Below are positions 17,112-47,151 of a stretch of 47,151 bases of DNA, piece by piece. Each line of letters starts with the position of its first letter. Position 1 is the first letter of the stretch. A program made the translations under genes and the position numbers. A model generated the notes under the pieces. That model saw only the letters and a program-made list of their open reading frames with translations. It did no database searches and was not told the origin of the DNA. The stretch is from Chitinophagales bacterium (lineage in GTDB: Bacteria > Bacteroidota > Bacteroidia > Chitinophagales > Saprospiraceae), in assembly GCA_026928325.1 (NCBI GenBank), contig JAIXKS010000021.1, forward strand, positions 87,542 to 134,692, read 5' to 3'.

Positions 17112-17271
17112 AGTGCAACGTCCATAAAAAGACTTATATCATAATGGAAGTAATTTTTTTAAAGATCAAGGCAAAAAACGCAGGCATAGTGGTAACTATG
17201 GCGAGTATTTTTAACGATGAGATTTGAAAAAAGAACAACATTTTATTAAGATTTTTTTGTGGACAGAGCAC
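17112..17271 (+). repeat. 160-bp palindromic element, locus 1 copy 1
   Basis: First of three head-to-tail copies with an exact 160-bp period. Its left end is degraded (GTGCAACGTC instead of GTGCTCTGTC); from ATAAAAAGAC onward it matches copies 2 and 3. A TA dinucleotide precedes the end. It carries the intact 27-codon ORF at 17144-17227. Confidence 0.95.
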
Positions 17272-17431
17272 AGTGCTCTGTCTATAAAAAGACTTATATC
17301 ATAATGGAAGTAATTTTTTTAAAGATCAAGGCAAAAAACGCAGGCATAGTGGTAACTATGGCGAGTATTTTTAACGATGAGATTTGAAAAAAGAACAACA
17401 TTTTATTAAGATTTTTTTGTGGACAGAGCAC
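17272..17431 (+). repeat. 160-bp palindromic element, locus 1 copy 2
   Basis: Full copy with GTGCTCTGTC and GACAGAGCAC ends. As far as I can read it is identical to copy 3. The junction with the neighbours is GAGCAC-A-GTGCTC, one T short of the TA seen at other loci. ORF at 17304-17387. Confidence 0.95.
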
Positions 17432-17592
17432 AGTGCTCTGTCTATAAAAAGACTTATATCATAATGGAAGTAATTTTTTTAAAGATCAAGGCAAAAAACG
17501 CAGGCATAGTGGTAACTATGGCGAGTATTTTTAACGATGAGATTTGAAAAAAGAACAACATTTTATTAAGATTTTTTTGTGGACAGAGCACT
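17432..17592 (+). repeat. 160-bp palindromic element, locus 1 copy 3
   Basis: Last copy of the triplet, followed by TA. Its final bases overlap the stop codon (TAG, 17593-17591) of the minus-strand exonuclease gene. ORF at 17464-17547. Confidence 0.95.
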
Positions 17593-18136
17593 AATCTAAG
17601 GACCACTCTTTAAAATACTTGATGAAAATTTTAGCTAGATTTTCAGCATCAGAGATCGCTCTATGATGAATACCTGTAAATTCGAAACCTTCCAATCGAA
17701 CTGCTTTTTTTAGCCCGAGTTCTGTTTTAAAAGACTTCAACTTGCTGTACGCAGGTTTTAAGTTATAATGATGATTTACCCATTCCGGGTCGATTTGATG
17801 TAATTCGCAATCGCTTCTAAGTTGATCTTTATCGTATTTTCCCCAGCTGATCAACGTATATTTTTCTTGATCTATATTGATCCAATCCTGAAATTCCTCA
17901 ATCACCGATGGATACAATTTGGCTCGATCGACTTGTTGTTGCGTTATCGAAGTCAAACTTTTGCAAAAATCGGATAAAACCGGGTTAATCGTAGGTTTTA
18001 CGAAGCGAATAAACGTCGATTCTATCTCAGCATAATCATTGACTTTGACAACCCCGATTTCAATTATTTCGTTGACACCTTTTGGAGGTCTTCCCAACCA
18101 ACACGTTGCTTCTAAATCAAAGATAATATAATTCAA
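17591..18136 (-). CDS. DEDDh-type 3'-5' exonuclease
   Basis: The 181-residue protein is an exonuclease of the DnaQ/ERI-1-like class. FDLEATCW near the start gives the first Asp and Glu, LISWGKYDKDQL gives the second Asp, and HHRAISDAENLAKIF gives the His and final Asp. Two metal ions at these residues remove 3' nucleotides from DNA or RNA; which one is unknown. The start is a TTG at 18136; no ATG fits. It follows the acyltransferase gene by 26 bases and probably ends the engB-acyltransferase-exonuclease transcript. Its stop codon TAG is made of one native base and two bases of the palindromic repeat array, so the array touches the gene end exactly. Confidence 0.88.
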   Translation of the reverse strand: MNYIIFDLEATCWLGRPPKGVNEIIEIGVVKVNDYAEIESTFIRFVKPTINPVLSDFCKSLTSITQQQVDRAKLYPSVIEEFQDWINIDQEKYTLISWGKYDKDQLRSDCELHQIDPEWVNHHYNLKPAYSKLKSFKTELGLKKAVRLEGFEFTGIHHRAISDAENLAKIFIKYFKEWSLD

Positions 18137-18162
18137 AGTTGATACAATTTTCCTTCTTTTTG

Positions 18163-19830
18163 CTAACTAATTTTTTTCCAGCCCATTAACTCTTCAAATT
18201 CGTAATTGATCAATCTATTATGATAAAAGAAAAGCAGTTTGAGATCTGAACAAACAATTTGCTTCTGATCATTGACTGAAAGTACAGGTGGCACATGATA
18301 AATTCCCAATCGGGAAATGCCTGCTTTTATCAATGCAGGTATATCATCCCAAGGTGCATCTGCTATCGTCACTTGGTGGTCGGAAGCTTTTTCCTTAATT
18401 ATATGTACAAGTTTTGTTACGTTTTGTTCAAATAAATCTCCTTCAATAGAGAAACTCTTTCCCTTGTGATTCATCAATCCAATTAAATCCAAATCGGGAA
18501 ACTCTTGCGAGACCATCTGAAAAGCGACAAAGGCAACCACATTGCTAGAGAGAATGACATTGTGTTTTCGGTAAGACTCAACAATAACTTCTCCTAAGTA
18601 TTTTGAATAAATACTCTCTCTCTGTGGGTTTTGAGACAAGGTACCGCCAAAAGAAAAGTAATCCTTTAAATCAACCTTATTGCCAAACTTGTCAAAACTA
18701 ACACCTTCCTGATCTACACGATTGCCAAGAATATCAATTGGATCGCCGAAAGACATATATACTTCTGAATCTTTGCGATACAAGTCTCTAATAAAGCGCA
18801 TGATGGTTTTAAAATTGGGTCCTGAAGGTCGCGCCCTTTTATACTTATCTCTACCGATGGCTTGCAAATGTTGATCAACCAATCCGGAAGCTTCAAGTAC
18901 AAAGTGATAACCGATATTCAACGGAACAACAAAAACTTTTTTATCGCTTTCTTGCTCAATCATTAATCTTTGTGCTTCAATGACCGAACCGATTAGGCCG
19001 AGCTTCAGATTGCTTTCAGTCTGTCCGCTTCTGGATCGAGTACCACCCGGAAAAAACAAACAATTAACGCCTTGGGTGATGGAATAACAAGTCATAGATT
19101 TAAGGCATTCGAGATATATTGGGTTTTTCTTCCGACGATCTACCCTAAATGCCCCTAATCGATTCATAAAATACCCGACGATTTCTACATTATACAGGTT
19201 TAGGCCGGCACCATAAGAGAAAAATGGCAGTCCTACATTGGAATCTATCGCATATCCAACCATAATCGAATCTAGGTTTGAATAATGAGTGGGTAAGATG
19301 ACAACATTTCCCTTTTGGTATAAAGTGCGGATCTTCTCGATATCACCTACTACTTTTATCCTTTGTTGCAAATCAGCTTTACTACCCCATCGCCACTGTC
19401 CGCGAGCAAAAAATCTACTGAACAATCTTTTGAAAAAGGCAGTCAAAAACCATCGGGCAAACTTAAAAATGCCCGGACTAAAATGAGCGACAATTTCTTC
19501 ACTATATCGATTGATGATTTTTTTGAGTAAAGCCTCTTGCAAGGCATCTTTATTCTCTTTAGAAAGCGAGGCTTCAAGTTCCTTACTGATGTTCTGCCAA
19601 TAGGCCTTTTCGTCTTGTGGATCTACCTTCCATGGATTGTGCTTAATCCGCTGGGTTTCCATATAAATCGCCTTAGAAATGACGTCGTAGTACGAACCTT
19701 TAAATTCTTCTTGAAGATTTTCGTAAATAAAAACATTGAGTCGCTGAATAAAATCCGCCCTTTCTTTACTTTGTTTCGCAACAGGCCAAGTGGAAATATC
19801 AGGTTGTATATGTGGAAATATCTGAGTCAT
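18163..19830 (-). CDS. PlsB-like glycerolipid acyltransferase
   Basis: The 555-residue protein has an acyltransferase core in the middle: HYSNLD (residues 182-187) is the HX4D catalytic motif, GAFRVDR (about 226-232) and FPGGTRSRSG (260-269) are substrate-binding blocks, and VFVVPLNIGYHFV the last. This order fits the glycerol-3-phosphate/1-acylglycerol-phosphate acyltransferase family, and the length with extended N- and C-terminal parts is closer to PlsB than to PlsC. It would add acyl chains in phospholipid synthesis at the inner membrane; the exact acceptor is uncertain. A basic, aromatic stretch at about 120-145 (FKFARWFLTAFFKRLFSRFF) may bind the membrane. It starts 18 bases after engB. 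Confidence 0.85.
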   Translation of the reverse strand: MTQIFPHIQPDISTWPVAKQSKERADFIQRLNVFIYENLQEEFKGSYYDVISKAIYMETQRIKHNPWKVDPQDEKAYWQNISKELEASLSKENKDALQEALLKKIINRYSEEIVAHFSPGIFKFARWFLTAFFKRLFSRFFARGQWRWGSKADLQQRIKVVGDIEKIRTLYQKGNVVILPTHYSNLDSIMVGYAIDSNVGLPFFSYGAGLNLYNVEIVGYFMNRLGAFRVDRRKKNPIYLECLKSMTCYSITQGVNCLFFPGGTRSRSGQTESNLKLGLIGSVIEAQRLMIEQESDKKVFVVPLNIGYHFVLEASGLVDQHLQAIGRDKYKRARPSGPNFKTIMRFIRDLYRKDSEVYMSFGDPIDILGNRVDQEGVSFDKFGNKVDLKDYFSFGGTLSQNPQRESIYSKYLGEVIVESYRKHNVILSSNVVAFVAFQMVSQEFPDLDLIGLMNHKGKSFSIEGDLFEQNVTKLVHIIKEKASDHQVTIADAPWDDIPALIKAGISRLGIYHVPPVLSVNDQKQIVCSDLKLLFFYHNRLINYEFEELMGWKKIS

Positions 19831-19848
19831 AGATGGGCTATAATAGGG

Positions 19849-20451
19849 TTATACGCTTAATTCAGCAAGGATTTCTTCGATATATTTTAAGACTTCCTCA
19901 CGTCCCAATTTACTTTCGGAACTCGTAATAAAATAGGGAGGCAACTGTTCCCAAGATTTCAATAATGTCTTCAACAAGCTATTGATTTGAGATTGTAATT
20001 GAGTCTTGCCGAGCTTATCTGCCTTGGTAAAAACAAGGGCAAAAGGCACTTGGTTCTCACCGCACCAATCTAAAAATTCCTTATCCACCTTTTGAAGTTC
20101 GTGCCTACAATCGATCAATACAAAGGCTACAACCAATTGTTGCCTTTTGGCCAGATAAGTCGAGATCAACTTACTAAATCCTGCTTTCTTATCTTTAGAT
20201 ACTTTAGCATAGCCATAACCCGGCAAATCGACAAGATACCAAGCTTGATTAATCGTAAAATAATTAATCAATTGAGTCTTTCCAGGCGTAACGGATACCT
20301 TGGCTAAACCCTTCCGATTCGTCAGCATATTGATTAAAGAGGACTTTCCAACATTTGACCTTCCTATAAAGGCAAATTCCGGTTTGTCGTCTTTAGGACA
20401 TGCACTTTCTTTAGGAAAACTCGCAAGAAACTCAACTTCATTCATCTTCAT
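19849..20451 (-). CDS. engB: Ribosome-biogenesis GTPase EngB (YsxC/YihA)
   Basis: This 200-residue GTPase acts in late assembly of the large ribosomal subunit. Its motifs are complete: G1 GRSNVGKSS (30-38), the TPGKTQ switch (55-60), G3 DLPGYGYA (75-82), G4 TKAD (142-145) and a SSES loop (177-180). Length is standard. It leads a minus-strand group with the acyltransferase and the exonuclease; the acyltransferase gene starts 18 bases after its stop. The divergent barrel gene at 20679 shares the 227-base upstream region. Confidence 0.95.
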   Translation of the reverse strand: MKMNEVEFLASFPKESACPKDDKPEFAFIGRSNVGKSSLINMLTNRKGLAKVSVTPGKTQLINYFTINQAWYLVDLPGYGYAKVSKDKKAGFSKLISTYLAKRQQLVVAFVLIDCRHELQKVDKEFLDWCGENQVPFALVFTKADKLGKTQLQSQINSLLKTLLKSWEQLPPYFITSSESKLGREEVLKYIEEILAELSV

Positions 20452-20678
20452 TTCGGCATTGTTTTTGATATATTACAATCAACAATTATAGATTAAAACC
20501 TATCATTCAACAAAATAACCATCTGTTAAATTAGATTATGGCTATTTGAGACTTTATAATTATAACAAATAATTGTTAAACAATTTGCAAAAATAACCAT
20601 TTCTAAACGTTTTTTTCGTTATTGGATAAAGATAATGACTAAATACTTGGAATTTGTATTCAACTTTAATATTACCCC

Positions 20679-21314
20679 ATGAAACAATTTATTCTATATA
20701 TCGTATGTTTATTTGGCGTGTTAACGACCGGTTACAGCCAAATCGAGATCGGTCTCAAGGCCGGTATCAGCTCCTATGACCTCGCCAATAAAGGCTTGGT
20801 CGTGAAAGACCAAAATGAGACCTTTCAATGGAAGATACTCGATGCCGGATATGGTCATCACCTCGGCGTTTATACCCGATTGACCTTGCTCGGACTTTAT
20901 GTGGAGCCTGCTCTTTTATTTAATTCAAGTACCGTCAACTACGATTTAAAAACCTACAGCGAAAATGGTGTCTTGAATGTCATTCGTCAAGAGACCTATC
21001 ATGGTTTAGATATGCCGGTCATAGCAGGATTTAAAGTAGGTGCATTGAGGTTTCAAGGCGGTGTAGTTGGCCATTTTTTTGCCAATAACATCAGTGATGT
21101 TTTGAATATCAAAGGATATAGTCAAAAATTCAAAACCGGTACTTTTGGTTGGCAGGCCGGTACAGGCATCGATATCTGGAGACTCCGATTAGATCTGATG
21201 TTCGAAGGGAATTTCAACAAATTTGGCGATCATATTCGTATAAATGGTCATAATTATGCTTTTTCAGATGTGCCATCCAGGCTCATGCTTACTGCTGGCT
21301 TGAGGTTGTGGTAG
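20679..21314 (+). CDS. Small outer-membrane beta-barrel protein
   Basis: The 211-residue product has a signal peptide (MKQFILYIVCLFGVLTTGYS, cleavage before Q) and then repeated amphipathic strands typical of the PorT/OmpA-like Bacteroidota barrels: IEIGLKAGISSYDL, LGVYTRLTLLGLYVEPALLF, MPVIAGFKVGALRFQGGVVG and FGWQAGTGIDIWRLRLDLMF. It ends LMLTAGLRLW, a terminal aromatic suited to BAM recognition. Probably eight strands in the outer membrane. No specific function is shown. A role like that of PorT in type IX secretion is possible but not supported by any motif. Confidence 0.8.
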   Translation: MKQFILYIVCLFGVLTTGYSQIEIGLKAGISSYDLANKGLVVKDQNETFQWKILDAGYGHHLGVYTRLTLLGLYVEPALLFNSSTVNYDLKTYSENGVLNVIRQETYHGLDMPVIAGFKVGALRFQGGVVGHFFANNISDVLNIKGYSQKFKTGTFGWQAGTGIDIWRLRLDLMFEGNFNKFGDHIRINGHNYAFSDVPSRLMLTAGLRLW

Positions 21315-21367
21315 TGACTATTTCATCACAGCATCTAATATCCACTCAAACTTTGATGATATTATCG

Positions 21368-21375
21368 TATATTTG
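21368..21375 (+). promoter_or_regulatory. Candidate -7 box for the thioredoxin-like gene
   Basis: TATATTTG matches TAnnTTTG and lies 20-28 bases before ATG 21396, giving a leader of about 15 bases. Confidence 0.45.
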
Positions 21376-21395
21376 CCGCATAATCTAATAAGTTT

Positions 21396-21950: not shown

Positions 21951-21959
21951 GGAGAAATT

Positions 21960-22513: not shown

Positions 22514-22533
22514 TAAACTTTATTAATGTGTAA

Positions 22534-24081: not shown

Positions 24082-24116
24082 CTTGATCTTCAACTGTGTT
24101 TCTTGTACCATGTTTG

Positions 24117-25077: not shown

Positions 25078-28000
25078 TTAATTAATATTAAACCGCAGCG
25101 TCACGCCAGAACGAATGGTCGTAACTGGGAAGGACAATGTGGTACGAGGTACTGTCTTCGAATAGTCGAAGAAAAACCGCAATGCTAGGTTTTTATTGAC
25201 ATCATACTCAACATTTGGGCTGAAAGTGACCGTCTTTTGACCTCTATTGGCTTGGCCATCTACACCCGTTTGAAGGTCATAAACCTCGGAGATATCATCC
25301 TTTAGGGAGTATGTCAAGTTAATCTTCAAATCCTTACCTTGAGCACTCGTTCCCTTGTCCTTAACCAATTTAGACAATAAATTATCCTTTTTGGCTGGTG
25401 GTTCTTCTTCTTCGTTTTTCTTGCGCTTTTTAGATGATTTTTTATCCTTTTTAAATGCTTTGAAATTTTTCACCACATAACCACCATTCACACTAATCTC
25501 TTTAGACTTGGTTTCCCTCAGCTGCGATACGTCAATGGTCAAACTACGAGCCATCTTAAAGTCAAAATCTAATTTTAAATCCTTGACTGTTTTCAAGCTA
25601 ATACCGAGTACCGGCACAAACTGCTCCTGAATCGCCACTGCTGGCACTTCAAGCCTAGAGAAGTAGTTGGCATTAGGTGACAACTCACCATATGGATCCT
25701 GTGCATTATACAATGGTGAAGTTTGGAAGCTGCTCACTCGAATGGTGGATGCATATCCGTGCTTGATCGTAATATTAGAAAAATACTTACGAATCGGTCC
25801 CAATTTACTCAAACCTGCATAATTCAATTGCCAATTCGGTAACGGTATAAAAGTATTTTTGCTATAACGAGCTACCTGATCCAACTCTACATCATACGCT
25901 GATTGATTGGTATAAGTCGCTATAAATGCCGGAACAGTAACGTTAATATTAGTAGGTCCATATCCACCTGGATAATGTGGGTCTTGTTCATAAACACCCG
26001 GATTATCGATATTAGGTAATCTTCTGGCTATAATCTCTCGATTACTCTTGAATAATTCGTACAATCCACGGCTATCCTTAAACAAGGTATTCAGTGCATA
26101 AAACGAAGCATCATAAGAACCAACGTCATAGAGTGCCAATTGCTGGAATTCATCACCTGTTTTATCCGTCTTTCTAAACACTTCATTATGTGTCTCCTGA
26201 TAATTCTTTTTAAAGGAAACATCAATGCTGAAATCCTTAAATGGCTCAATCAAGGTCTTAATGTCTATCGAATGTCGTTTCGTTTGTATCAAGCCTTCAT
26301 TGAACTTCGTGCTTGGGTTAAACCATTCTTGATTGCGAAGCAACCAATTATTTTGACCCTGAATATTCGGTTGAATTCCTGCGATAAAGTCCCAACCTGG
26401 AGCTGTAAACCCTTGGCTTTGGCCGAGTAATTGAGACTGTGGCATAAACCCAGGTATCTGTGTCGTGCGATCGTCTTTAAAATTGACTTTCACTGATCTA
26501 ACCAACATCAATGGCCTGAGTATGACTCGTTCGATGATGGATGGATCTCGTGGTTTGTCGTCCTTTTTAGCCTTATCCTTAGGATCTGCCTTTCCAGAAT
26601 TATCGCCTTCATCAGCAATCGCCTTATCCGGTTCTAGTGCATCCATGGTCATCCGTTTGTCTCTTGTAGAAACATTGCGTTGCCGTTGCTGTGGCTGATT
26701 TTTAACTGACCTTGCAGCCTTTCCGGTTTCTATGGATTTGAGGTAGCTAGATTTTAAATACAACTTACTAAAGTCTAAAGAAACATTCAGGCCTGAATTC
26801 TGACCATTTCTGATGGTATTACCCAATAATGTACCTTCTTCGTCTATCGTGATCAAACTTCCAGCATCCCAACCGTAACTAGCTCGATAATCTGCACCTG
26901 CCGTTATCCAATCCAAAATAGGAACACTCCTGAAAGGCAACCTATAATTGAGGGAAACATCATGCGTATAAGTTTTTGATCGACCTAAGGATCGTAGGTT
27001 TCGATTTCTATAATAATTCGGGTCGTCAATTTCGTTGATAACATCTTTATACAATCGTCCATTTTCATCTCGGAGACTTCCCTTTTCGTCCACCAATTGT
27101 CGATCTTCCAAAGTATTAGCTACGCCTACATATCTCAATTGGTCAACAATGGCATTTGTCTTTGCTCGATATCCAAACCGAATCGATTTTGTCAAATCCC
27201 AGTCAAGCACATAGTTCCGTTCCCAATTAAACCGATTATCATCAAAAGCATATATCGGCTCTAGTGGCTGTCTGAAAGTACGTCGATTGAGCTGATCGAC
27301 CATTTTTGATGTAAAAGAAAAATTATTTGGCAATATACTAAAGTTGAAGTCCGAAAGGAGTTTCAGAGATTTAACTTTAATAAACTTCAATGGCTCTATA
27401 AAAGTAGATTTACGGGAGAAAACATATTCCAATCCCAAGGCTCTTGATACTTGTTTGTCTTCTTTAAGCAAGAAATTGGAAAAAGAATTTTCCGTAAAAG
27501 CATAAGAAATACCAAAATTTGACGGAGACCACGGCTTGCCAGAACCTCCGGCTGTAACCTTCGCATTGGTGATGGTAAATGTTTTGATGGTTACTTCTTC
27601 TCTAGCCAAAGAGCGAATAGAATCCCGAGCATGATTATCACTGATCAAATCCAATTTTTCGCGAACTTTGATATCTTGATCGATGGGGTCGTATTCAGGA
27701 GTTACAATCGTCTTTTGGTACTGGGCATACATCGGAACAACGAGTTTCGCTGCCTTAGGCACCAACTTACCGGCATCTATGTTAATGGCTGCATCATATT
27801 GCAGTTTTTCTTCTCGCATCCGTTCATGCAGTCTATTATCCAATCCTCCAAAACCGGTACTTGTATATTCTCCGGCAAGGTTGATTTCTCCTAAATCGGC
27901 CATTTGCAACTGAAGGCGGCTTTGTGCAGCCCAAGAAAATTGCTCATTATATCCCGTAACACGCATTTCATTGACCCAAATCTCTCCACTCACAATCTTC

Positions 28001-31000
28001 TGAGTCGTTCTGTTTTTAACAGAGATTTCGATTACTTTGACCGTTCCTAAAGATGGATTACCCACCATTCGGATGACATCGCCTTTTTCGGAATTAATAA
28101 CCGCTTGTACGATCGTATCTCGGGCATTAATACCATTGGCGATTCTAACCTTGCGAAGCCCTAAAAGACTATCCAAAGGTAAGTTTATATAATTTCTATC
28201 GGGCCAAATATTTTCAGGTCGCTGGTCAGTATGTCCCGGGGTACTCTTAGAGATGGTCAACGGCAATTCGTACTCATAGTAATTATTGACCATTTGACGT
28301 CTTTCTACCGTATAAAGATTTGTTGTATCTACCGGAAAGTCTTTACCCAATCTGACCACTACTGAAATATCTCCATTATTGATCGAGTCACCAATAATAT
28401 TTAAAAGGTTTTCAGCATGTACAAACATTTGCAATCGCTTATATAATGCGAGGTTTACATTAGCGATTTTAGTCATACCTACTTCACAATCTTGTGGTAG
28501 ATTTCTAAATTTCAATGCCATCGATCTTTCATCTTGGAAGGTAGTAGCCAACTGTCCAAAGGAGCGTGTACGAATCGTACCTCGTGGTGTCTGATACTTG
28601 AATGGTAGCTTATCTGAATTTTCCTCAATACCCACATCATCAATACTAAATTCCAATCTATCAATTCCATCTCTTACCACTTCACATATAGGTTTTTGCT
28701 TTCTCCAGATACTACGTTGCAATTGGAATTCTGCAAGACGGAAAGTCTTAGGCGTCTCGAAGTCCGTAAAATACATCCGCATAAACTGAATACCCCTAAA
28801 TCCATCGATTTCTCCGACTTTCGAACCAGAAGATAATGGAATTTGGAATCGATACCATTTTTGCTCTTTATTATTTACTACGATCACTTTGGATTCTCGC
28901 AAGTATTGACTAATAGAGACGGTATCTAACTCATCAGTATTGCCCAACCTTCGGATATCGATGATATATTCATAAAAGGCTTCTGTCTGATCGAGCGATT
29001 TATTATTATTGATATCTTCCGAATCTGGATAATTATTACCTCTTACTGACGTGGTCGCATTTTGAGAATTTCCATTATTAAACGGAGTGTTTCCTTGTGG
29101 TCCGTTAAATCTTTTCATCCTATCGAGGAGTGAATTGTGGTGACTTAAGGATGGGTCATTAAAGAAAACAAAGTCATCATTGGATGGGTCGGCTACAATC
29201 TCTGCGATATTGGCCAGACCATTTTCAATCAACCAAGATTCATACTTGGTCGCTTCCTGCGCATTATCTAAACCATCTAGCCCTAAATCTTGCTTAGGTC
29301 CTTCTTCCAAATCAAAGCCATTGACCAATGGAATACTTACAGTCGCCCTACCATACACCGTATTTAAGACTGGAACTCTGTGTTGTGTCGTCGGCAAAGC
29401 ATTCTCAAAAAACAATAAATTATCTTTGATGACATCTTCAGAGACACTTCCTAAGTTAAACACGATCTTTCCGGACTCGCCACTGATTTGCGGTTGGCCA
29501 TCACCTCGATCCATGAAGGGATTGAGCATCCAAAACTCGATACTTTCATAATTGGCCGATTCAAAATCTGAATTTGGAAAATAGCGCTGAATACCCGCCC
29601 ATCTTGAAGTCGGATCACGAAGTACAATCTGATTATCTACAAGATCAAAACCTCTACTATATCCCGGGTGGCCATCTCTATTTTCAAAGTTATAGGGTCC
29701 TCTTTCACTCGGGTAGTAGCTCAAGTCAAAGGTAAATAATTGTTGTTGTTGTCCAGGTTGAACTTCCCTATTTTTGAATAGTTGATTTTGATTAATAATG
29801 GCCGTATAAGGATTCTGATTATCAACACTAGTCCTATTCGTTCCTAAATCCAAGGTACTCCAGTTAAGCAACGCACGGTTTGCATTACTGGCAAGATGGT
29901 TGACAAGAGAGGATTCTTTAAACTTAGTGGCATCCGTGGTTAATTCAGAAGGCACACTCGCCAATGACCAAACATTGGTATTTGATCCTCCTAAATTAAA
30001 TCCGGAAACGGCGCCTTCGAAATCATCCAGATTGGCAATTCCTTCATCTTCAAATACTTGATTTCCATTATTATCTGTATATTCCAAGTTTATACCCTTG
30101 GCGTGACCGGGTTTTAGCCCTGCTACTTCTGCTGTAAAATTCAAGATCGACTTTTCTGATGTACTATAAAACGGCAGCTTATCAACCAATTTAGTGACCA
30201 ACGGAACTTCATTTGAATAGTTAAAATCCAATCCAAAAATACGGTTTCGAATCGGATCATCTCCAATATTCACCTTTTGCGTAATCGGTCGCTCTGACAA
30301 TCTTAAAAAAGTAGCACCTAATGAGGATTTTTTATTAAATTGATACTCAGCTCGTAACCCAATCATGTTCTTTTGCTGCAAACTGAATAACGAGTTATCT
30401 TCAAAAGAGACATTAATAGGTGTACCTTGCGATAAATAAGCCGGATTAATGATTCTCAATTTTCCTAAAGAGTAATCTATTTCGTAATCCAAGCCTTCCA
30501 CTAATTGCTTTCCTCCTGCTGACACGCGCACCGATCCTTGCGGTATGTAAAATCCAAGGCTAAATTCACCATTTGAACTACCCGATTTCACCTTACCTAC
30601 CATACGGAATTTATTTTGAGTCAATCCGGTATGTTCGGTTACGGCTTGGATTTGTTGGTATAATTCGTTATATCTAAATTTAGAAAGCGCAGCTTCAACG
30701 CCTATCGTATCCAAATTGTATTTATCGACCATGATCTTACCGATTCGCTCTCCGGTCAAGTGAGAACCAAAAGGCTCTAACACTGGAAACACAACACTTC
30801 CTGTTCTCTCTATGACCGTCACGCCCGGGATATAGTCAAAAAATCCATCGGGTTGTGGATCACCAAATCTATTGAGATTATCTAGATTAAATAACTCTAA
30901 TATCGGCAATTTGATCAAAAGCGGATCCGGCATATATCTTTTTAAAGACCCATCCGTAAAGTCGTCTTCATAAAAAATATCAAACTCAAAATCTGATGGA

Positions 31001-32655
31001 TTGAGCGAACTCGTATTCAAATTATACACGTTTTTCATCATCAAATCCCACATAGGAGTATTGACGATTTGATTGGTTGATTTCAAAAGCTTTACGAAGT
31101 GTACTTTAGGTGGTTCAACCCGTGTTGTATCGGCTTGATTGGCAGGATTAATGGAGTTTAAAGACAACTGACCTACTTCATATACTGCGTTTGGATTGGA
31201 AGTATAGTAGTAGTTGTAAGCCACACCCAATACCTGATTTGGTCGTAATCGAACATTTAGCGATAGGGTTCCCAACTTAGGATTATAGGTATATTCAGAA
31301 GAATTCAATCTGCGACCTCGGAATACTTCAAAGTCTTTGGTTCTTTTAAGCAAAAATTCAGGACCTTCGAGGACATTGGTCACTTTATCGATATCGACAA
31401 TATTTTTATTGCGCTGTAACTTTTCATAGATGTCATTGACTTTATTATCTGGCAAATACTCGCCAAAATCATCTCTATCACCTCCTAAATAGTTGGTTGC
31501 TGAATTCGGATTGGTCGAGTGCTTGCGATCTGCTTCCGCCAAATCGGCAATAGCGGCAATCATATTGGAGTTCTCTTGAAATTCCGGTCGATCATCAGAC
31601 ACCCATACTTCTATCTGCACGATCTGATGTGGCGTTCGGATATAAGGAATGCTTGACAAAGCCCTTTCGTACACATCTCTATTGTAATGGGAAATAAAGA
31701 AGTGACGGTCTGCATCATATTTGTTTGGCGTAAGGATAAATTCTTGCTCCGAAACTCCGTTTTCTATCCGGATGGAATTATTTTTAGAACGTTGTTGAGA
31801 CGCCAAACCAGTAATTCTCAACCTTGCAAATTGCACTTCTGCTTTGAGACCGAACAAACTTTGTGCACCTTGGATTAGATTGCCTCGCAACGGCAAACTC
31901 ACATTACCTGCTTCGATTTTTTTGATGATATCATCTTCTGAGAAAGCGTCAGAATCAAAGGCGAGTTTTGTTTTTCGATCAAAATCAAAGGTTGATTGTG
32001 TATCGTAATTAAAGTCAAGGTCGAGTTTTTTACCTATTTTACCATTGACATTCATTTTTATTTGGGTCGTAAAATCCGGCTGACTTACTCTTTGTGCATT
32101 TAGGGTAAGTCTAGGGTCATTTCTTCTCGTATAGAGCCAACCGACATTGAGATCAACCCTTCCTTGTGGTTGAATATTGACTTCCGTACCTCCAAACAAG
32201 CGGTCAATCAGACTGTTTTCTAAGTCTATCCGATCGACAGGGTCGATTTTTCCAGATTTAGACTTTTTATCAGATTTAATACCTCCTAATGTATTAAAAT
32301 ATCTTCGCTCCTGATCCTGACCTACGTAGTCCATGTACTCTTCAAACGTCATATAGGTTGGTGTCCGATAGTATTCGTCGCCTATTTTTTCATATATGAT
32401 GTATTGGCCGGAAATCGGGTCGTATTCTACCTTCTGTGAGATTTCCTTTGTAGTAATATCAAATGGATTGTATTTTTTGTCCGTGATGAAGTCGCCATGT
32501 CGATCGACTAACGGAATCGTATCCAACGTATTGGTTTTCAGTATCTCATGACTAAATGGGTTTGGTAAATTTCTAGACGGAGCCGATCCAGCTACCATTT
32601 GAAATACCCAGCCCAAAATCATTAAACTAACTAAGCAAAGCTTTCTAAAAGTCAT
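25078..32655 (-). CDS. sprA: SprA, outer-membrane translocon of the type IX secretion system
   Basis: At 2525 residues this is the giant beta-barrel through which type IX cargo crosses the outer membrane; related proteins are Sov and SprA of gliding bacteria. A signal peptide (MTFRKLCLVSLMILGWVFQMVAGS) is followed by family regions such as GGTEVNIQPQGRVDLNVG near residue 155, RPNQVLGVAYNYYY, KSSLGATFLRLSERP, LDFDFKMARSLTIDVSQLRE and, at the end, VTFSPNVEYDVNKNLALRFF. Length matches the family (about 2,400). The frame is intact. A Lys-rich, low-complexity insert (KKDKKSSKKRKKNEEEEP) lies near 2400. It follows ruvA by 117 bases, an order also known from other Bacteroidota. PorZ elsewhere in the window belongs to the same system; PorV, PorU and the PorK-N motor are not seen here. 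Confidence 0.96.
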   Translation of the reverse strand: MTFRKLCLVSLMILGWVFQMVAGSAPSRNLPNPFSHEILKTNTLDTIPLVDRHGDFITDKKYNPFDITTKEISQKVEYDPISGQYIIYEKIGDEYYRTPTYMTFEEYMDYVGQDQERRYFNTLGGIKSDKKSKSGKIDPVDRIDLENSLIDRLFGGTEVNIQPQGRVDLNVGWLYTRRNDPRLTLNAQRVSQPDFTTQIKMNVNGKIGKKLDLDFNYDTQSTFDFDRKTKLAFDSDAFSEDDIIKKIEAGNVSLPLRGNLIQGAQSLFGLKAEVQFARLRITGLASQQRSKNNSIRIENGVSEQEFILTPNKYDADRHFFISHYNRDVYERALSSIPYIRTPHQIVQIEVWVSDDRPEFQENSNMIAAIADLAEADRKHSTNPNSATNYLGGDRDDFGEYLPDNKVNDIYEKLQRNKNIVDIDKVTNVLEGPEFLLKRTKDFEVFRGRRLNSSEYTYNPKLGTLSLNVRLRPNQVLGVAYNYYYTSNPNAVYEVGQLSLNSINPANQADTTRVEPPKVHFVKLLKSTNQIVNTPMWDLMMKNVYNLNTSSLNPSDFEFDIFYEDDFTDGSLKRYMPDPLLIKLPILELFNLDNLNRFGDPQPDGFFDYIPGVTVIERTGSVVFPVLEPFGSHLTGERIGKIMVDKYNLDTIGVEAALSKFRYNELYQQIQAVTEHTGLTQNKFRMVGKVKSGSSNGEFSLGFYIPQGSVRVSAGGKQLVEGLDYEIDYSLGKLRIINPAYLSQGTPINVSFEDNSLFSLQQKNMIGLRAEYQFNKKSSLGATFLRLSERPITQKVNIGDDPIRNRIFGLDFNYSNEVPLVTKLVDKLPFYSTSEKSILNFTAEVAGLKPGHAKGINLEYTDNNGNQVFEDEGIANLDDFEGAVSGFNLGGSNTNVWSLASVPSELTTDATKFKESSLVNHLASNANRALLNWSTLDLGTNRTSVDNQNPYTAIINQNQLFKNREVQPGQQQQLFTFDLSYYPSERGPYNFENRDGHPGYSRGFDLVDNQIVLRDPTSRWAGIQRYFPNSDFESANYESIEFWMLNPFMDRGDGQPQISGESGKIVFNLGSVSEDVIKDNLLFFENALPTTQHRVPVLNTVYGRATVSIPLVNGFDLEEGPKQDLGLDGLDNAQEATKYESWLIENGLANIAEIVADPSNDDFVFFNDPSLSHHNSLLDRMKRFNGPQGNTPFNNGNSQNATTSVRGNNYPDSEDINNNKSLDQTEAFYEYIIDIRRLGNTDELDTVSISQYLRESKVIVVNNKEQKWYRFQIPLSSGSKVGEIDGFRGIQFMRMYFTDFETPKTFRLAEFQLQRSIWRKQKPICEVVRDGIDRLEFSIDDVGIEENSDKLPFKYQTPRGTIRTRSFGQLATTFQDERSMALKFRNLPQDCEVGMTKIANVNLALYKRLQMFVHAENLLNIIGDSINNGDISVVVRLGKDFPVDTTNLYTVERRQMVNNYYEYELPLTISKSTPGHTDQRPENIWPDRNYINLPLDSLLGLRKVRIANGINARDTIVQAVINSEKGDVIRMVGNPSLGTVKVIEISVKNRTTQKIVSGEIWVNEMRVTGYNEQFSWAAQSRLQLQMADLGEINLAGEYTSTGFGGLDNRLHERMREEKLQYDAAINIDAGKLVPKAAKLVVPMYAQYQKTIVTPEYDPIDQDIKVREKLDLISDNHARDSIRSLAREEVTIKTFTITNAKVTAGGSGKPWSPSNFGISYAFTENSFSNFLLKEDKQVSRALGLEYVFSRKSTFIEPLKFIKVKSLKLLSDFNFSILPNNFSFTSKMVDQLNRRTFRQPLEPIYAFDDNRFNWERNYVLDWDLTKSIRFGYRAKTNAIVDQLRYVGVANTLEDRQLVDEKGSLRDENGRLYKDVINEIDDPNYYRNRNLRSLGRSKTYTHDVSLNYRLPFRSVPILDWITAGADYRASYGWDAGSLITIDEEGTLLGNTIRNGQNSGLNVSLDFSKLYLKSSYLKSIETGKAARSVKNQPQQRQRNVSTRDKRMTMDALEPDKAIADEGDNSGKADPKDKAKKDDKPRDPSIIERVILRPLMLVRSVKVNFKDDRTTQIPGFMPQSQLLGQSQGFTAPGWDFIAGIQPNIQGQNNWLLRNQEWFNPSTKFNEGLIQTKRHSIDIKTLIEPFKDFSIDVSFKKNYQETHNEVFRKTDKTGDEFQQLALYDVGSYDASFYALNTLFKDSRGLYELFKSNREIIARRLPNIDNPGVYEQDPHYPGGYGPTNINVTVPAFIATYTNQSAYDVELDQVARYSKNTFIPLPNWQLNYAGLSKLGPIRKYFSNITIKHGYASTIRVSSFQTSPLYNAQDPYGELSPNANYFSRLEVPAVAIQEQFVPVLGISLKTVKDLKLDFDFKMARSLTIDVSQLRETKSKEISVNGGYVVKNFKAFKKDKKSSKKRKKNEEEEPPAKKDNLLSKLVKDKGTSAQGKDLKINLTYSLKDDISEVYDLQTGVDGQANRGQKTVTFSPNVEYDVNKNLALRFFFDYSKTVPRTTLSFPVTTIRSGVTLRFNIN

Positions 32656-39292: not shown

Positions 39293-39313
39293 TCCGATAG
39301 TCAATTTTAAACT

Positions 39314-39474
39314 AGTGCTCTGTCTATAAAAAGATTTAAATAATAATGGAAGTTGTTTTTTTAAAGATCAAGGCAAAAAACGCAGACATAGTGGTAACTA
39401 TGGCGAGTATTTTTAACGATGAGGTTTGAAAAAAGAACGACATTTCATTAAGATATTTTTGTGGACGGAGCACT
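39314..39474 (+). repeat. 160-bp palindromic element, locus 2 copy 1
   Basis: Preceded by CTA; ends GACGGAGCACT. Junction with the next copy is GAGCAC-TA-GTGCTC. Shares with copy 2 the variants GATTTAAATAATAATGG and GCAGACATAG, not found at other loci. ORF at 39346-39429, ending with GTT TGA. Confidence 0.95.
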
Positions 39475-39635
39475 AGTGCTCTGTCTATAAAAAGATTTAA
39501 ATAATAATGGAAGTTGTTTTTTTAAAGATCAAGGCAAAAAACGCAGACATAGTGGTAACTATGGCGAGTATTTTTAACGACGAGATTTGAAAAAAGAACA
39601 ATATTTCATTAAGATATTTTTGTGGACAGAGCACT
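39475..39635 (+). repeat. 160-bp palindromic element, locus 2 copy 2
   Basis: Ends GACAGAGCACT and is followed by ACCC. ORF at 39507-39590. Bases after the end (39636-39655) read as a broken inverted end. Confidence 0.95.
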
Positions 39636-39655
39636 ACCCTGTCCACAAAAAATAC
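39636..39655 (-). repeat. Remnant of an inverted copy of the palindromic element
   Basis: CTGTCCACAAAAA at about 39639-39651 is the reverse complement of the right end of the element (TTTTTGTGGACAG). No full copy follows, so it looks like a truncated, oppositely oriented end. Confidence 0.5.
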
Positions 39656-42980: not shown

Positions 42981-43064
42981 AAAATACGATGTTATCATTG
43001 CTCTTATTCCCTTTAACGATACTTCCAGAAAGTATGTAGTTTGGAATTCATTAAAATCATAAGA

Positions 43065-43811
43065 TTAAGATGTTTTTAAAATTTGTTCACTTGTCTTACC
43101 AAAACGTCGTTCTCGGCTTTGATAGTCTGTTATCGCTGCTAAAAAATGTTCTTTTCTAAAATCTGGCCACAATACCGGAGTGAAAAACAATTCCGAATAA
43201 GCGATTTGCCACAATAGAAAATTGCTAATACGCTGTTCGCCACTTGTACGAATCAACAACTCTGGATCCGGAATATCTCTAGTACTTAGATAATTGCTAA
43301 AATCTTGTGCTTCGAGCACATTGGGATCAATCTCCTTGCGTATGGATGCATCGGCTATCTTTTTTGCAGCTTCAACAATCTCCCATCTCGCAGAGTAATT
43401 CAAGGCCAATACTAAAGTCATCCTTGTATTGTTGCGTGTATTCTCGATACCTTCATACAAGGATTCCCGTGTTTTATCGGGCAATTTAGACAAATCTCCG
43501 ATCGCCATCAATCGAATATTATTCTTATTGAGTGTTGCTAACTCCTTTCGAACAGTCTCCACCAACAAAGACATGAGCGCATTTACTTCGATACTCGGCC
43601 TAGACCAGTTTTCCGTTGAAAAAGCATACAACGTCAGATACTTAATACCCAATTCTGCAGCAGCCTCAGTTACTTCTCTAACTGCAGTAACGCCGTGCTT
43701 ATGGCCAAAAACCCGTGGTTTGCCTTGCAATTTTGCCCACCTACCATTGCCATCCATGATGATAGCAATGTGTTGCGGGAGATTATCCGGATTAATATCG
43801 CTGCCTAACAA
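43065..43811 (-). CDS. uppS: Isoprenyl transferase (undecaprenyl diphosphate synthase)
   Basis: The 248-residue enzyme condenses isopentenyl units in cis to make the lipid carrier used for peptidoglycan and polysaccharides. The start is a TTG at 43811, giving NLPQHIAIIMDGNGRWAKLQ, where Asp in MDGNGRWA is catalytic. GHKHGVTAVREV, TLYAFSTENWSRP and the C-terminal LLIRTSGEQRISNFLLWQIA with YSELFFTPVLWPDF are signature segments. A TACATTTG box at 43846-43853 implies a leader of about 30 bases. It is the first gene of uppS-bamA-ompH. Confidence 0.95.
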   Translation of the reverse strand: MLGSDINPDNLPQHIAIIMDGNGRWAKLQGKPRVFGHKHGVTAVREVTEAAAELGIKYLTLYAFSTENWSRPSIEVNALMSLLVETVRKELATLNKNNIRLMAIGDLSKLPDKTRESLYEGIENTRNNTRMTLVLALNYSARWEIVEAAKKIADASIRKEIDPNVLEAQDFSNYLSTRDIPDPELLIRTSGEQRISNFLLWQIAYSELFFTPVLWPDFRKEHFLAAITDYQSRERRFGKTSEQILKTS

Positions 43812-43845
43812 TATCGAATTCAGTTTAAATATTTGTTATGTGGCG

Positions 43846-43853
43846 CAAATGTA
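43846..43853 (-). promoter_or_regulatory. Candidate -7 box for uppS-bamA-ompH
   Basis: CAAATGTA on the plus strand is TACATTTG on the minus strand, a TAnnTTTG match 35-42 bases before the TTG start at 43811. Confidence 0.45.
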
Positions 43854-44280
43854 TAAAAAAATATGAAGCCTCCACGCTATTTACGCCGATAAATTATTGA
43901 ACCATAACCCGATTCGATACTTTTAATTCAATCTTAACATTTATTATCTCGTAAAATCATCTTCTAACACATCAATTATTCATTCAATCCAGTCCAAACT
44001 TGAAAATATGCGTTCAATACTTTAGGTCATTCATGCACCCAGTTTTCTTCGATAAAAACAACTAAGAGGAACACAACCCTCAGTTTTTACGCATTGATTT
44101 TTCATTTTATCAACCTATAATTACAATCTTAAAAGCATGATATTAAAAATTACATATACTTATAGTACCTTAATAACCAGTAATTTAAAATCAAATATCT
44201 ATTTAAACTCAAACACTTAACACCATGCTTTTTATATTCAAAAAATCACCAAAAATTTCTGTTTTACCACTGACACCTTC
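43854..44280. other. Intergenic region, no gene recognised
   Basis: AT-rich sequence upstream of uppS with stops in every frame. I see no RNA gene or hairpin of note. The three 33-bp repeats and then the palindromic elements of locus 3 follow. Confidence 0.5.
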
Positions 44281-44370
44281 AAAACACCCCTTGTTTTGTT
44301 ACAAAGGTTTAGCAAAACACCCTTTGTTTTGTTACAATTTTTATTAAAAACACCCCTTATTTTGTTACAA
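44281..44370. repeat. Three direct repeats with an exact 33-bp period
   Basis: A 24-base core (AAAACACCCC then TTGTTTTGTTACAA, with one base changed in copies 2 and 3) occurs at 44281-44304, 44314-44337 and 44347-44370, separated by unrelated 9-base spacers. Each core contains the near-palindrome TTGTTACAA and an AAAAC/GTTTT pairing. On the minus strand the frame stays open through all three, reading CNKxxGV each time, so it may be a coding remnant; alternatively a phased protein-binding site. Confidence 0.85.
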
Positions 44371-44395
44371 ATTACCAGTAAAATATCCTATTCCT

Positions 44396-44555
44396 AGTGC
44401 TCTGTCTATAAAAAGACTTAAATTATAATGGAAGTTGTTTTTTTAAAATCAAGGCGAAAAACGCAGGCATAGTGGTAACTATGACGAGTATTTTTAACGA
44501 TGAGATTTAGAAAAAGAACGACATTTCATTGAGATTTTTTTGTGGACAGAGCACT
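44396..44555 (+). repeat. 160-bp palindromic element, locus 3 copy 1
   Basis: Preceded by CCTA. Ends GACAGAGCACT and joins the next copy as GAGCAC-TA-GTGCTC. Lacks one base in AAAGATC, which breaks the small ORF. It has ATGACGAG in place of ATGGCGAG, as does copy 2. Confidence 0.95.
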
Positions 44556-44721
44556 AGTGCTCTGTCTATAAAAAGACTTAAATTATAATGGAAGTTATTT
44601 TTTTAAAAATCAAGGCGAAAAACGCAGGCATAGTGGTAACTATGACGAGTATTTTTAACGATGAGATTTAGATTTGAAAAAAGAACGACATTTTATTAAG
44701 ATCTTTTTGTTGACGGAGCAC
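44556..44721 (+). repeat. 160-bp palindromic element, locus 3 copy 2
   Basis: 166 bp because GATTTA is duplicated (about 44665-44676). The right end is altered (TGACGGAGCAC then AA). The 27-codon ORF is intact at 44588-44671 but ends in TAG. Confidence 0.95.
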
Positions 44722-44969
44722 AAGTTTAAAAAACGCATAAATCCTGATGGTTAACAGGCATCTTTCCTGAAGTTTTTACGAACGTGATTTGAACTCAAGC
44801 AAGCTAAACATAATTCGCGTGACATACCTCGTAAAACACCATTCGCCAAACCCAAAATATTTGAACTTGACTTTTTTAACTCACTCCATATTTTATCATA
44901 CCGAGCCTCCTTTATTGAAAATATTGCTAAAAAACTGCATTCATTATCACATTTTTTATAATTTTGATA

Positions 44970-44977
44970 TACATTTG
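44970..44977 (+). promoter_or_regulatory. Candidate -7 box for the DUF2207 gene
   Basis: TACATTTG matches TAnnTTTG and would give a leader of about 60 bases before ATG 45042. Confidence 0.4.
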
Positions 44978-45041
44978 TTTCGACGTATAAAATCAACACA
45001 CAATTGGCCTATAAAAAATACCTAATAAAACTTCATACACC

Positions 45042-46838
45042 ATGATAAGAATATTACAAGTGTTTATTTTAGTATCGATAGGTTGGATTTATGGACATAC
45101 CCAAGATACTGCTCCTAAAACACCGCCTGGTATTGACCGTATAATATCTTTTCACTCCGATGTAAAAGTAGGCATTAGAGGTGGTCTATCCGTGACTGAA
45201 ACGATCAAAGTCTTTAAAAGTCCAGATAGAACCGATGGTCAAATAGAACGAGGAATCACAAGGGAATTTCCGACCAAGTACAAAACCCCACTCGGCGGCT
45301 ATACGGAAGTGCCTTTTAGGTTTATTGGTGTTGTTAAAAATGGAAGAGTTGAAAAATGGAAAAGTGAAGATGTCTCAAATGGTGTACGTTTGTATTTCGG
45401 AGATCAAAACATCATATTAAATCCAGGCATCTATGTTTATACGATTCAATACACTACCGCCAAACAATTGATTTATCACCAAGAAAAGGATGAACTTTTT
45501 TGGAATGTAAACGGCGCCGGTTGGAAATTGGGAGCTGAAGAAGTGAGTTGTACGATTACTTTTCCAGATAGTGCTCGCATCATCAAGGACTACTGCTATA
45601 CTGGTCAACAAGGATCAAAAAATTCTAAGTGTACATCAGCATTGGTTAGTAACAACGTAATCACCTTTAAAACTAAAGAAAGACTAGAACCGCTAGAGAC
45701 TATGAGTATTTCCGCTACGATAGAAAAAGGTGTATTGATACCGGAACAAATACAAATCGTAAATCCGATGGATTATATCGTCTTTTTAATAGTCATCGGA
45801 AGTGTATTTTTAATACTCATCGTCAATATTTACAACTGGTGGAAAGTTGGTAGAGATCCTAAAAAAGGTACAATAGTTCCAAACTTCAGCCCACCCAAAG
45901 GATTTTCACCTGCTGATTGCGGCTTTCTGCACAACCCAAAATTTACAAACAAATTGTTTACGTCTGCTTTAGTGGATATGGCAGTAAATAAAATGTTGAA
46001 AATTGACATAATAAAAGATAATTCTGAAACTCAGATTGAAGCATACAAATTTTCGAAACCCGATGATGAAGTATCCAATGAATTAATCGATTCACGGTTC
46101 GAATGGTACGGTTTTAAACCCGATGAATTGTATGGTTTATTGCTCGTAAAAAACGAATTTAATAGCAATTTTGCTGAAATCAATAAAAAATTTGTAAGTA
46201 ACGTCAAAAAAAGACTTACAGAAGTAGGGAATGAAGACAAAACGAAACAAGTTCTTTACAGAACAAATAACAGTAAAATCGATTTTGGATGTGTTACAAT
46301 CATCGTGGTAGCTATAATTTTAGGTTTCTATAGTGAAATGTCAGGCATGGGCGAAATTATTTTAGTACTATACTTTGCGTTCTTGTTGATTGGTGCTTTT
46401 TTCCAATTTCTTTTCGCCCGTTGGTTGCCGGCATATAGCGAAGAAGGAAGAAAAGTTTTAGATGAAATTTTAGGATTTAAGATGTATCTCAGTGCCGCAG
46501 AAAGCTACTTTATGAATCTGATGAATCCACCAGAAAAATCACTGCAACTTTTCGAAAAATACCTACCTTATGCTATTGCTCTAGAATGTGACTTCAAGTG
46601 GACATACAAATTTCAGGGTATAATTGATACAGCCATCAAGAAAGAAGAAAATCATGACTTCTTTTTATTTTCAGATGATAATAATTTTGATATAAACACC
46701 TTCTCTTCTAATTTAAATGACAGTTTTTCCTATACCATTTCTTCGGCGAGTACATTACCAAGCAGTAGTGATGGAGGTAGTGATGGAGGTGGTAGTGCCG
46801 GTGGCGGCGGTGGTGGAGGCGGTGGTGGCGGCTGGTAA
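45042..46838 (+). CDS. DUF2207 membrane protein with Gly-rich tail
   Basis: The 598-residue protein has a signal peptide (MIRILQVFILVSIGWIYG), an extracytoplasmic beta domain (about 30-225, with IDRIISFHSDVKVGIRGGLS, ITREFPTKYKTPLGGYTEVP and LFWNVNGAGWKLGAEEVSCT), one helix at about 246-264, a cytosolic part (FSPPKGFSPADCGFLHNPKF), two close helices at about 408-458, and a second cytosolic part that ends in an extreme Gly-rich tail closing with Trp. This is the DUF2207 layout, whose function is unknown. The Gly/Ser tail after the last folded part is common in the family and may be a flexible linker. It is the last gene before the fourth repeat locus. Confidence 0.9.
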   Translation: MIRILQVFILVSIGWIYGHTQDTAPKTPPGIDRIISFHSDVKVGIRGGLSVTETIKVFKSPDRTDGQIERGITREFPTKYKTPLGGYTEVPFRFIGVVKNGRVEKWKSEDVSNGVRLYFGDQNIILNPGIYVYTIQYTTAKQLIYHQEKDELFWNVNGAGWKLGAEEVSCTITFPDSARIIKDYCYTGQQGSKNSKCTSALVSNNVITFKTKERLEPLETMSISATIEKGVLIPEQIQIVNPMDYIVFLIVIGSVFLILIVNIYNWWKVGRDPKKGTIVPNFSPPKGFSPADCGFLHNPKFTNKLFTSALVDMAVNKMLKIDIIKDNSETQIEAYKFSKPDDEVSNELIDSRFEWYGFKPDELYGLLLVKNEFNSNFAEINKKFVSNVKKRLTEVGNEDKTKQVLYRTNNSKIDFGCVTIIVVAIILGFYSEMSGMGEIILVLYFAFLLIGAFFQFLFARWLPAYSEEGRKVLDEILGFKMYLSAAESYFMNLMNPPEKSLQLFEKYLPYAIALECDFKWTYKFQGIIDTAIKKEENHDFFLFSDDNNFDINTFSSNLNDSFSYTISSASTLPSSSDGGSDGGGSAGGGGGGGGGGGW

Positions 46839-46929
46839 TCCGAAAGTCGCATTTGTATTAACACCTTGAAATTGCTCTTGTTTTGATATTACATCTCAAT
46901 CTCTTGCGTCCATATTCGATATTGTAGTT

Positions 46930-47090
46930 AGTGCTCTGTCTATAAAAAGACTTAAATTATAATGGAAGTTGTTTTTTTAAAGATCAAGGCGAAAAACGCA
47001 GGCATAGTGGTAACTATGGCGAGTATTTTTAACGATGAGATTTGAAAAAAGAACAACATTTCTTTAAGATTTTTTTGTGGACAGAGCACT
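46930..47090 (+). repeat. 160-bp palindromic element, locus 4 copy 1
   Basis: Preceded by TTA; ends GACAGAGCACT. The apex hairpin CATAGT-GGTA-ACTATG is at 47003-47018. ORF at 46962-47045. It starts 91 bases past the DUF2207 stop. Confidence 0.95.
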
Positions 47091-47151
47091 AGAGCTCTGT
47101 CTATAAAAAGACTTAAATTATAATGGAAGTTATTTTTTTAAAGATCAAGGC
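47091..47151 (+). repeat. 160-bp palindromic element, locus 4 copy 2 (cut by window end)
   Basis: Left end is AGAGCTCTGTC, with the usual GTGC altered to GAGC. The copy runs out of the window after GATCAAGGC; the start of the small ORF is present. Confidence 0.9.

What the first reader, a model, noticed from the sequence alone, without database searches (positions are those of the whole stretch)
17112..47151. A family of about 160-bp elements, tandem at four loci, with GTGCTCTGTC ends and TA flanks
Nine copies lie at 17112-17592, 39314-39635, 44396-44721 and 46930-47151. Every locus is intergenic, every array is head-to-tail, and all copies point the same way. The ends GTGCTCTGTC and GACAGAGCAC are exact inverted repeats, and the outer flanks are TA in nearly every case (locus 3 right side is AA). 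A TA duplication is the mark of IS630/Tc1-mariner elements, so this looks like a non-autonomous MITE of that group. No transposase with these ends is in the window.
Basis: partly seen in the sequence, partly recalled or inferred. Interest (0 to 1): 0.85.

Follow-up and report, generated by a model that had tools for sequence, protein, structure and literature searches.

The report
Hairpin mini-transposons sharing one core
These 160-letter repeats are small jumping DNA hairpins related to ones found across a whole bacterial family; unusually, their inner folded core is shared while their outer ends, the part a transposase normally reads, differ widely.

Summary
Observation confirmed: nine copies (eight complete, one cut by the window end) in four intergenic head-to-tail arrays. 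The genome holds 61 exact-ended copies and 257 TAGTGCTCTGTC half-sites. They are mobile, non-autonomous, MITE-like: borders are mostly CTA...TAG, and G003 has filled and empty copies of one repeat. IS630 membership is not supported: no DDE_3 gene in G000, in 8 of 9 congeners, or in 10 of 16 element-bearing family genomes. New: the middle ~89 nt is a structured core found in 173 of 298 family genomes, 78 of 112 genera, with strong covariation. The ends are near chance (outer 15 nt 32% identical, core 62%), yet body length and core position are nearly fixed. G293 alone carries at least five end classes, one with 3-bp duplications. The + strand folds better as RNA in 38 of 40 genomes. Best reading: a hairpin module selected as a folded single strand, probably RNA, and moved in trans by several different transposases. 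Mobiliser and core function are unknown. Elements were found through the core, which limits the core-versus-ends contrast.

The parts
17111..17593 (+). Array 1: three copies 17113-17271, 17273-17431, 17433-17591; outer TA at 17111-17112 and 17592-17593; junctions are a single A (17272, 17432); left end of copy 1 decayed
39313..39636 (+). Array 2: copies 39315-39473 and 39476-39634, each flanked by TA
44395..44723 (+). Array 3: copies 44397-44554 and 44557-44721 (second 165 nt); TA left and between, AA right
46929..47151 (+). Array 4: copy 46931-47089, then TA and the first 60 nt of a second copy (from 47092, first letters GAGCTCTGTC) cut by the window end; beyond lies an assembly gap and then a right end
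39512..39600 (+). Core (89 model positions) of the example copy 39476-39634; corresponding core stretches were read at 17154-17228 and 46972-47046
39476..39511 (+). Left arm (36 nt) of the same copy; begins with the class-specific end GTGCTCTGTC
39601..39634 (+). Right arm (34 nt) of the same copy; ends with GACAGAGCAC, pairs with the left arm

Best explanation
The window's repeats belong to a family-wide class of miniature mobile elements with a body of about 155-162 nt: a shared structured core of about 89 nt between two complementary arms of about 32-37 nt. Shown by sequence: copies move (empty paralogs; the same element in unrelated flanks), usually duplicate TA (CTAG target in this genome), and no autonomous copy was found. 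The core is shared across genera while the end sequences are not, and the + strand is the one kept foldable. Inferred: each end class is moved in trans by its own cut-and-paste transposase, which reads the arms, while the core is kept because the element's + strand works as a folded single strand, more likely RNA than ssDNA since G.U/G.T pairs are tolerated. Inferred too: tandem arrays form in this class because the ends begin with G and end with C, so an insertion into CTAG re-creates CTAG at both borders; inverted neighbours are missing because they would make a roughly 320-bp palindrome.
For: Copy number: 61 exact pairs in G000, 130+127 half-sites. Flanks and tandem structure. Three filled and three empty paralogs in G003. 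G293: 13 copies with the same top score; the 8 loci read are the same element between TAs in unrelated DNA. Core model R1 hits 173 of 298 family genomes and 7 of 395 across the phylum, 3 of those 7 being family members. Covariation: 21 of 24 pairs with double changes; score 0.491 against 0.144 shuffled and at most 0.122 slid. In the 24 of 40 genomes with TA found on both sides: outer 15 nt 0.32 identity (chance 0.27), core 0.62; body 155-161 nt with the core 34-37 nt from the left and 32-35 nt from the right end in 23 of 24. Several end classes in one genome; 3-bp duplications in class b, 4 of 5. Arm mismatches, one element per genome, 40 genomes: G.T 71, A.C 21, other 115; 41 elements of other genera: 71, 16, 110. 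+ strand RNA more stable in 38 of 40 genomes, arms alone 37 of 40.
Against: No transposase was tied to any end class, so trans-mobilisation is inferred. Elements were collected by their core, so the contrast between shared core and differing ends is partly built in; two G293 elements have class-b ends with a different interior. The 49-row alignment was fitted to the model and contains one antisense row and two rows each from L020, L180 and L183; shuffles and slides do not reproduce the score, however. Genomes sharing an end class are not independent in the mismatch counts. In G000 the G.T excess over the first 19 positions (218 against 15) comes largely from positions 11, 13 and 19, and position 21 shows A.C in 46 of 86 copies. 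No transcript was seen. Orientation to neighbouring genes disagrees between data sets (G000 26 antisense against 10 sense; other genera 10 against 17), so an effect through read-through RNA is not supported. 16 of 40 elements did not show TA on both sides in the automatic check.
Confidence: 0.6

Rival explanations
1. Ordinary IS630/Tc1-mariner MITE: a deletion derivative of an IS630-type element, moved by its transposase; the core is just shared ancestry.
For: TA duplication with CTAG preference, short exact TIRs, empty sites.
Against: No DDE_3 in G000 or 8 of 9 congeners or in 10 of 16 element-bearing genomes; G293 has 13 copies with the identical top score, of which the 8 loci read are the same element, but no DDE_3. 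No short inward pair of its exact ends other than the elements themselves. IS630 loci of six other genomes show no inward pair of element ends, only stray 8-9-nt matches in G109 and G287 loci. Ends near chance while the interior is shared; one class has 3-bp duplications.
Confidence: 0.2
2. A single-strand DNA element of the REP/RAYT kind: the + strand hairpin is the substrate of an HUH (Y1) transposase encoded elsewhere in the genome.
For: Strand-specific fold, intergenic, head-to-tail arrays, no autonomous copy seen; orientation coherent along contigs in G000 (41 of 50 neighbouring places).
Against: Y1_Tnp absent from 3 of 20 element-bearing genomes, G293 with the fresh burst included, and present in 13 of 17 genomes without a core match. 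TA or 3-bp duplications. No replichore-linked orientation in G293.
Confidence: 0.07
3. Host-encoded structural or regulatory repeat fixed by selection, not a mobile element.
For: Intergenic, nearer to gene 3' ends (median 73 against 161 bp), shared structured core.
Against: No element match between LysR and OmpH in G005 and G001. Empty paralogs. The same element in unrelated flanks. No consistent orientation to genes.
Confidence: 0.05
4. The element encodes its own guide RNA: the + strand RNA carries both arms, binds a protein through the core, and finds the element's ends by base pairing, so ends can change freely without a matching transposase.
For: Shared core, nearly fixed length, differing ends, several end classes in one genome, + strand fold favoured even in the arms, no matching transposase found.
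Against: Two duplication lengths in one genome suggest more than one enzyme; no transcript or protein partner seen; no neighbour protein family recurs in more than 4 of 37 genomes.
Confidence: 0.08

Closest known systems
TA-ended bacterial MITEs: Correia/NEMIS (Neisseria), ERIC, RUP (pneumococcus); review PMC2229807 (passages read)
   Same: Under 200 bp, TIRs, TA at the ends, no protein, long stem-loop as RNA; mobiliser unproven, with TIR similarity to IS630-Spn1 as indirect evidence for RUP
   Different: Here the ends differ between genera and inside one genome while the middle is shared family-wide; nearly fixed body length; one class with 3-bp duplications; head-to-tail arrays
REP/RAYT and REPIN elements (features recalled; of PMC3116915 and PMC3733652 only the listing and the start of the abstract were seen)
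   Same: Palindromic, intergenic, high copy, transposase not part of the repeat
   Different: 160 nt instead of 20-40 (the REP size given in the abstract start of PMC3733652), target duplication, no link to Y1_Tnp
MITECca01 of Cardinium (PMC9769881, passages read)
   Same: A MITE in a bacterium that I recall as Bacteroidota
   Different: About 240 bp, derived from an IS982-family element of the same genome; not found in other Cardinium strains according to the passages seen
IS110 bridge RNA / IS1111 seekRNA (recalled, not tested)
   Same: Structured RNA from a mobile element with constant scaffold; dinucleotide shared by target and ends
   Different: No recombinase gene seen with the element, long palindromic ends, no guide loops identified

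Membership tests
IS630/Tc1-mariner MITE | TA target duplication (CTAG preference of IS630 is recalled) | tested here: met
   CTA 48 of 72 left, TAG 53 of 77 right; empty site with one TA (in the filled copies the left one reads CA and there is one extra T on the right)
IS630/Tc1-mariner MITE | Same TIRs as an IS630-type transposon | tested here: inconclusive
   no such element in the DNA examined; G000 was not read completely, so a parent may lie outside it
IS630/Tc1-mariner MITE | IS630 transposase present where elements are recently active | tested here: not met
   absent in G000, in G293 and in 10 of 16 element-bearing genomes
TA-ended bacterial MITEs (CREE/NEMIS, ERIC, RUP) | Under 200 bp, TIR, TA ends, stem-loop, mostly outside ORFs | tested here: met
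   (5 of 81 places overlap an ORF of 90 aa or more in that script)
TA-ended bacterial MITEs (CREE/NEMIS, ERIC, RUP) | TIR is the conserved part within the family | tested here: not met
   outer 15 nt 0.32 identity (chance 0.27) against core 0.62 in 24 genomes; met only inside one class. Elements were found by the core, which biases this test
REP/RAYT | Y1 transposase in the genomes that carry the repeats | tested here: not met
   absent in 3 of 20 element-bearing genomes
Known RNA family (Rfam 15) | Match at gathering score | tested here: not met
   none in the window; three matches below gathering score in six other loci
IS110 bridge RNA type | DEDD recombinase and guide loops | not tested

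The most novel reading that the evidence does not exclude
A family-wide mobile RNA module: the element's + strand RNA, with constant core and both arms, directs recognition of the element's own ends (by pairing or by docking any of several transposases), which frees the ends from sequence-specific protein recognition.
Probability: 0.08. Interest if true: 0.95.

Novelty: new variant of a known kind. Interest (0 to 1): 0.74.

Why it matters
Bacterial MITEs are usually pictured as passive: ends kept for a transposase, interior free to drift. Here the interior is shared and the ends differ, in 78 of 112 genera of one family, with evidence that one strand's fold is under selection. That makes two open questions testable: who moves such elements, and why bacterial MITEs fold so well as RNA. 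The core has no Rfam match in the loci searched and gives a searchable model.

Tried and rejected
Rejected or unproductive: IS630 mobiliser; Y1/RAYT mobiliser; autonomous copy with the same ends in G293 (exact TAAGTAATGR only, pairs judged by eye) and a 1.87-kb inward pair in G000, which proved to be two separate element places around ordinary genes; a recurrent neighbour gene; replication-strand orientation, suggested by G000 but not seen in G293, G109 and G172 not tested with skew; orientation to genes; known RNA families; plasmids, phages, viral contigs (no match). The genome contigs pattern hit three Marinifilum records at what looks like one orthologous upstream region; read as chance. 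A first strand test with RNAalifold pairs was dropped because it favours whichever strand is folded; the end-register tests replaced it. Rows dropped or doubled: one search left out the L066 copies that repeat the window, but one partial copy at the window end stayed counted twice, and some arrays are split by assembly gaps; C55 of G000 was asked for in a failed call and not fetched later, though one search lists a copy there. One search left out L194 (contig end); searches use one element per genome, also without L194.
Full report
OBSERVATION. The window holds nine copies of a ~159-nt element in four intergenic arrays, all on +. The 10-nt ends occur far above chance (17 hits with up to one mismatch, 16 in the arrays, against 0.98 expected). 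Details to correct: copy 1 of array 1 has a decayed left end; array 1 junctions are a single A; array 3's right flank is AA; array 4 runs out of the window into an assembly gap.

OWN GENOME. The host genome G000 (3.72 Mb, 74 contigs) has 61 exact-ended pairs, 63 sense matches by blastn plus 26 rows that are the antisense of the palindrome, with only 40 of 316 candidates scored, and 130+127 TAGTGCTCTGTC half-sites. In 52 pieces (51 fetched, and the window) nhmmer gives 122 matches, 88 full length, in 86 clusters, 29 with two or three matches; some clusters are one array split by an assembly gap and one partial copy is counted twice. All 36 neighbouring pairs have the same orientation (5 across gap Ns, one an overlapping pair of partial matches). 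Spacers are TA 12, A 11, T 2, none 2, other short ones 4, Ns 5. Left flanks are TA in 61 of 72 and CTA in 48 of 72; right flanks TA in 68 of 77 and TAG in 53 of 77. Copies in one array are more alike (0.953, 20 pairs) than copies of different arrays (0.913, 3635 pairs). Because the element begins with G and ends with C, insertion into CTAG re-creates CTAG at both borders; that would explain tandem growth (inference). Inverted neighbours would form a palindrome of about 320 bp, which bacteria do not keep well (established knowledge); that is my explanation for their absence.

MOBILITY. No element match lies between LysR and OmpH in G005 and G001, where the window has array 2. In G003 a repeat exists filled (L176, L177, L178) and empty (three copies in L177): empty GGC-TA-GCTC, filled GGC-CA-[element]-T-TA-GCTC, so the left TA reads CA and one T is extra; two other paralog pairs (L174/L175, L180) are less clean. 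In the near-complete genome G293, 13 of 42 matches have the same top score; the 8 of these that I read are the same element, between TAs in unrelated DNA.

BEYOND THE FINDING: THE CORE. Elements of several congeners show the same interior; those of G009 have other ends. A covariance model of the central 89 nt (R1) hits 173 of 298 genomes of the family, 78 of 112 genera (at most 14 candidates scored per genome), against 7 of 395 across the phylum, of which 3 are family members, 3 belong to one other family of the class (cores of a variant type) and 1 is weak. The family is not named by any search; from genome sizes and numbers I guess Saprospiraceae.

THE ENDS. One element from each of 40 genomes: TA was found on both sides in 24. 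In these the outer 15 nt are 0.32 identical (chance from composition 0.27) and the core 0.62. In 23 of the 24 the body is 155-161 nt with the core 34-37 nt from the left and 32-35 nt from the right end; the other was called at 178 nt. G293 alone carries at least five end classes around the core, two of them read once. Class b (GAAGTTGTTTAAAAATGG) shows 3-bp duplications in 4 of 5 copies (TGT, TTA, CAT, AAT). G109 and G264 each carry three classes and G172 two. So the ends look exchangeable. Caveat: elements were found by their core, so the same ends with other interiors would be missed; two such elements, with 3-bp duplications, were met by chance.

ONE STRAND IS SELECTED. With the register fixed by the ends and both mismatch types penalised alike, one element per genome from 40 genomes gives G.T 71, A.C 21, other 115 (p = 2e-7; G.T exceeds A.C in 29 genomes, the reverse in 6, 5 ties); 41 elements of other genera give 71, 16, 110. 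Neither is corrected for shared descent. In 86 G000 copies G.T is 218 against 15 over the first 19 positions, mostly from positions 11, 13 and 19, while position 21 shows A.C in 46. RNA of the + strand folds better in 38 of 40 genomes, the core alone in 33, arms alone in 37 (fixed 156-158-nt stretches). Core covariation: 21 of 24 pairs with changes on both sides, score 0.491 against 0.144 for shuffles and at most 0.122 for slid partners (alignment fitted to the model, one of 49 rows antisense). G.U tolerance favours RNA over ssDNA but does not prove it.

WHO MOVES THEM. IS630 DDE_3: absent in G000 and 8 of 9 congeners (only G009 has it), absent in 10 of 16 element-bearing genomes and present in 6 of 12 without a core match. 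Y1_Tnp: absent in 3 of 20 element-bearing genomes, G293 included, and present in 13 of 17 without a core match. No same-ended autonomous copy was found in G293 or at the one G000 candidate; the listing of G000 ends was cut short, so others may exist. IS5/IS427, IS30 and IS110 families were not tested.

TANDEMS. Each of 37 loci from other genera gave a single core match. Second copies abutting the first appear, judged by their ends, in three of six newly read G236 loci, whose ends are of the same GTGCTC/CTAG class. This fits the CTAG re-creation idea.

ORIENTATION. In G000 neighbouring places on a contig share orientation (41 of 50), but G293 shows no replichore link (15+/5- against 13+/8-; my count from the list and the skew), and gene orientation gives no consistent rule. 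I leave the G000 pattern unexplained.

LITERATURE. Small TA-ended bacterial MITEs with stem-loop transcripts and no proven mobiliser are reviewed in PMC2229807 (passages). I found no paper describing this element.

VERDICT. Mobile MITE-like element: near certain. IS630 membership: not supported. Shared core with exchangeable ends and a selected + strand fold: well supported by sequence, with the ascertainment caveat above. Function of the core and identity of the mobilisers: open.

Noticed in passing
window 44278-44389: Three 33-bp direct repeats around CACCCCTTGTTTTGTTACAA, upstream of the undecaprenyl diphosphate synthase gene; look like repeated binding sites.
   Followed up: no
window 17591-18136: The exonuclease ORF ends exactly at the element: its stop codon is formed by the duplicated TA plus the end base of the element. 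Six of 78 gene 3' ends in G000 lie at distance 0 from an element.
   Followed up: partly
G000 contigs C2, C13, C14 (L049-L066): Element orientation is coherent along whole contigs (7 of 7, 6 of 6, 7 of 7 places) although no replication-strand rule holds in G293.
   Followed up: partly
L176, L177, L178, L120, L172, L173, L182, L184: Extra hairpins or longer inserts sit in the apex or beside the core of some copies; L182 (G002) and L184 (G006) share a related insert.
   Followed up: no
L138 (G008:C332): About 50-nt deletion derivative with both TIRs but no core.
   Followed up: no
L259 (G293:C1:4560001-4580000), 10221-10385 and 15084-15282: Two MITEs with class-b ends and 3-bp duplications but a different hairpin interior.
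   Followed up: partly
L128, L131, L133 (G000:C2:96359, 96820, 97701): Three element copies with the same flanks in the stretch read, 461 and 881 bp apart: a larger duplicated unit.
   Followed up: no
window 25078-32655: ORF of 2525 aa on the minus strand, not examined.
   Followed up: no
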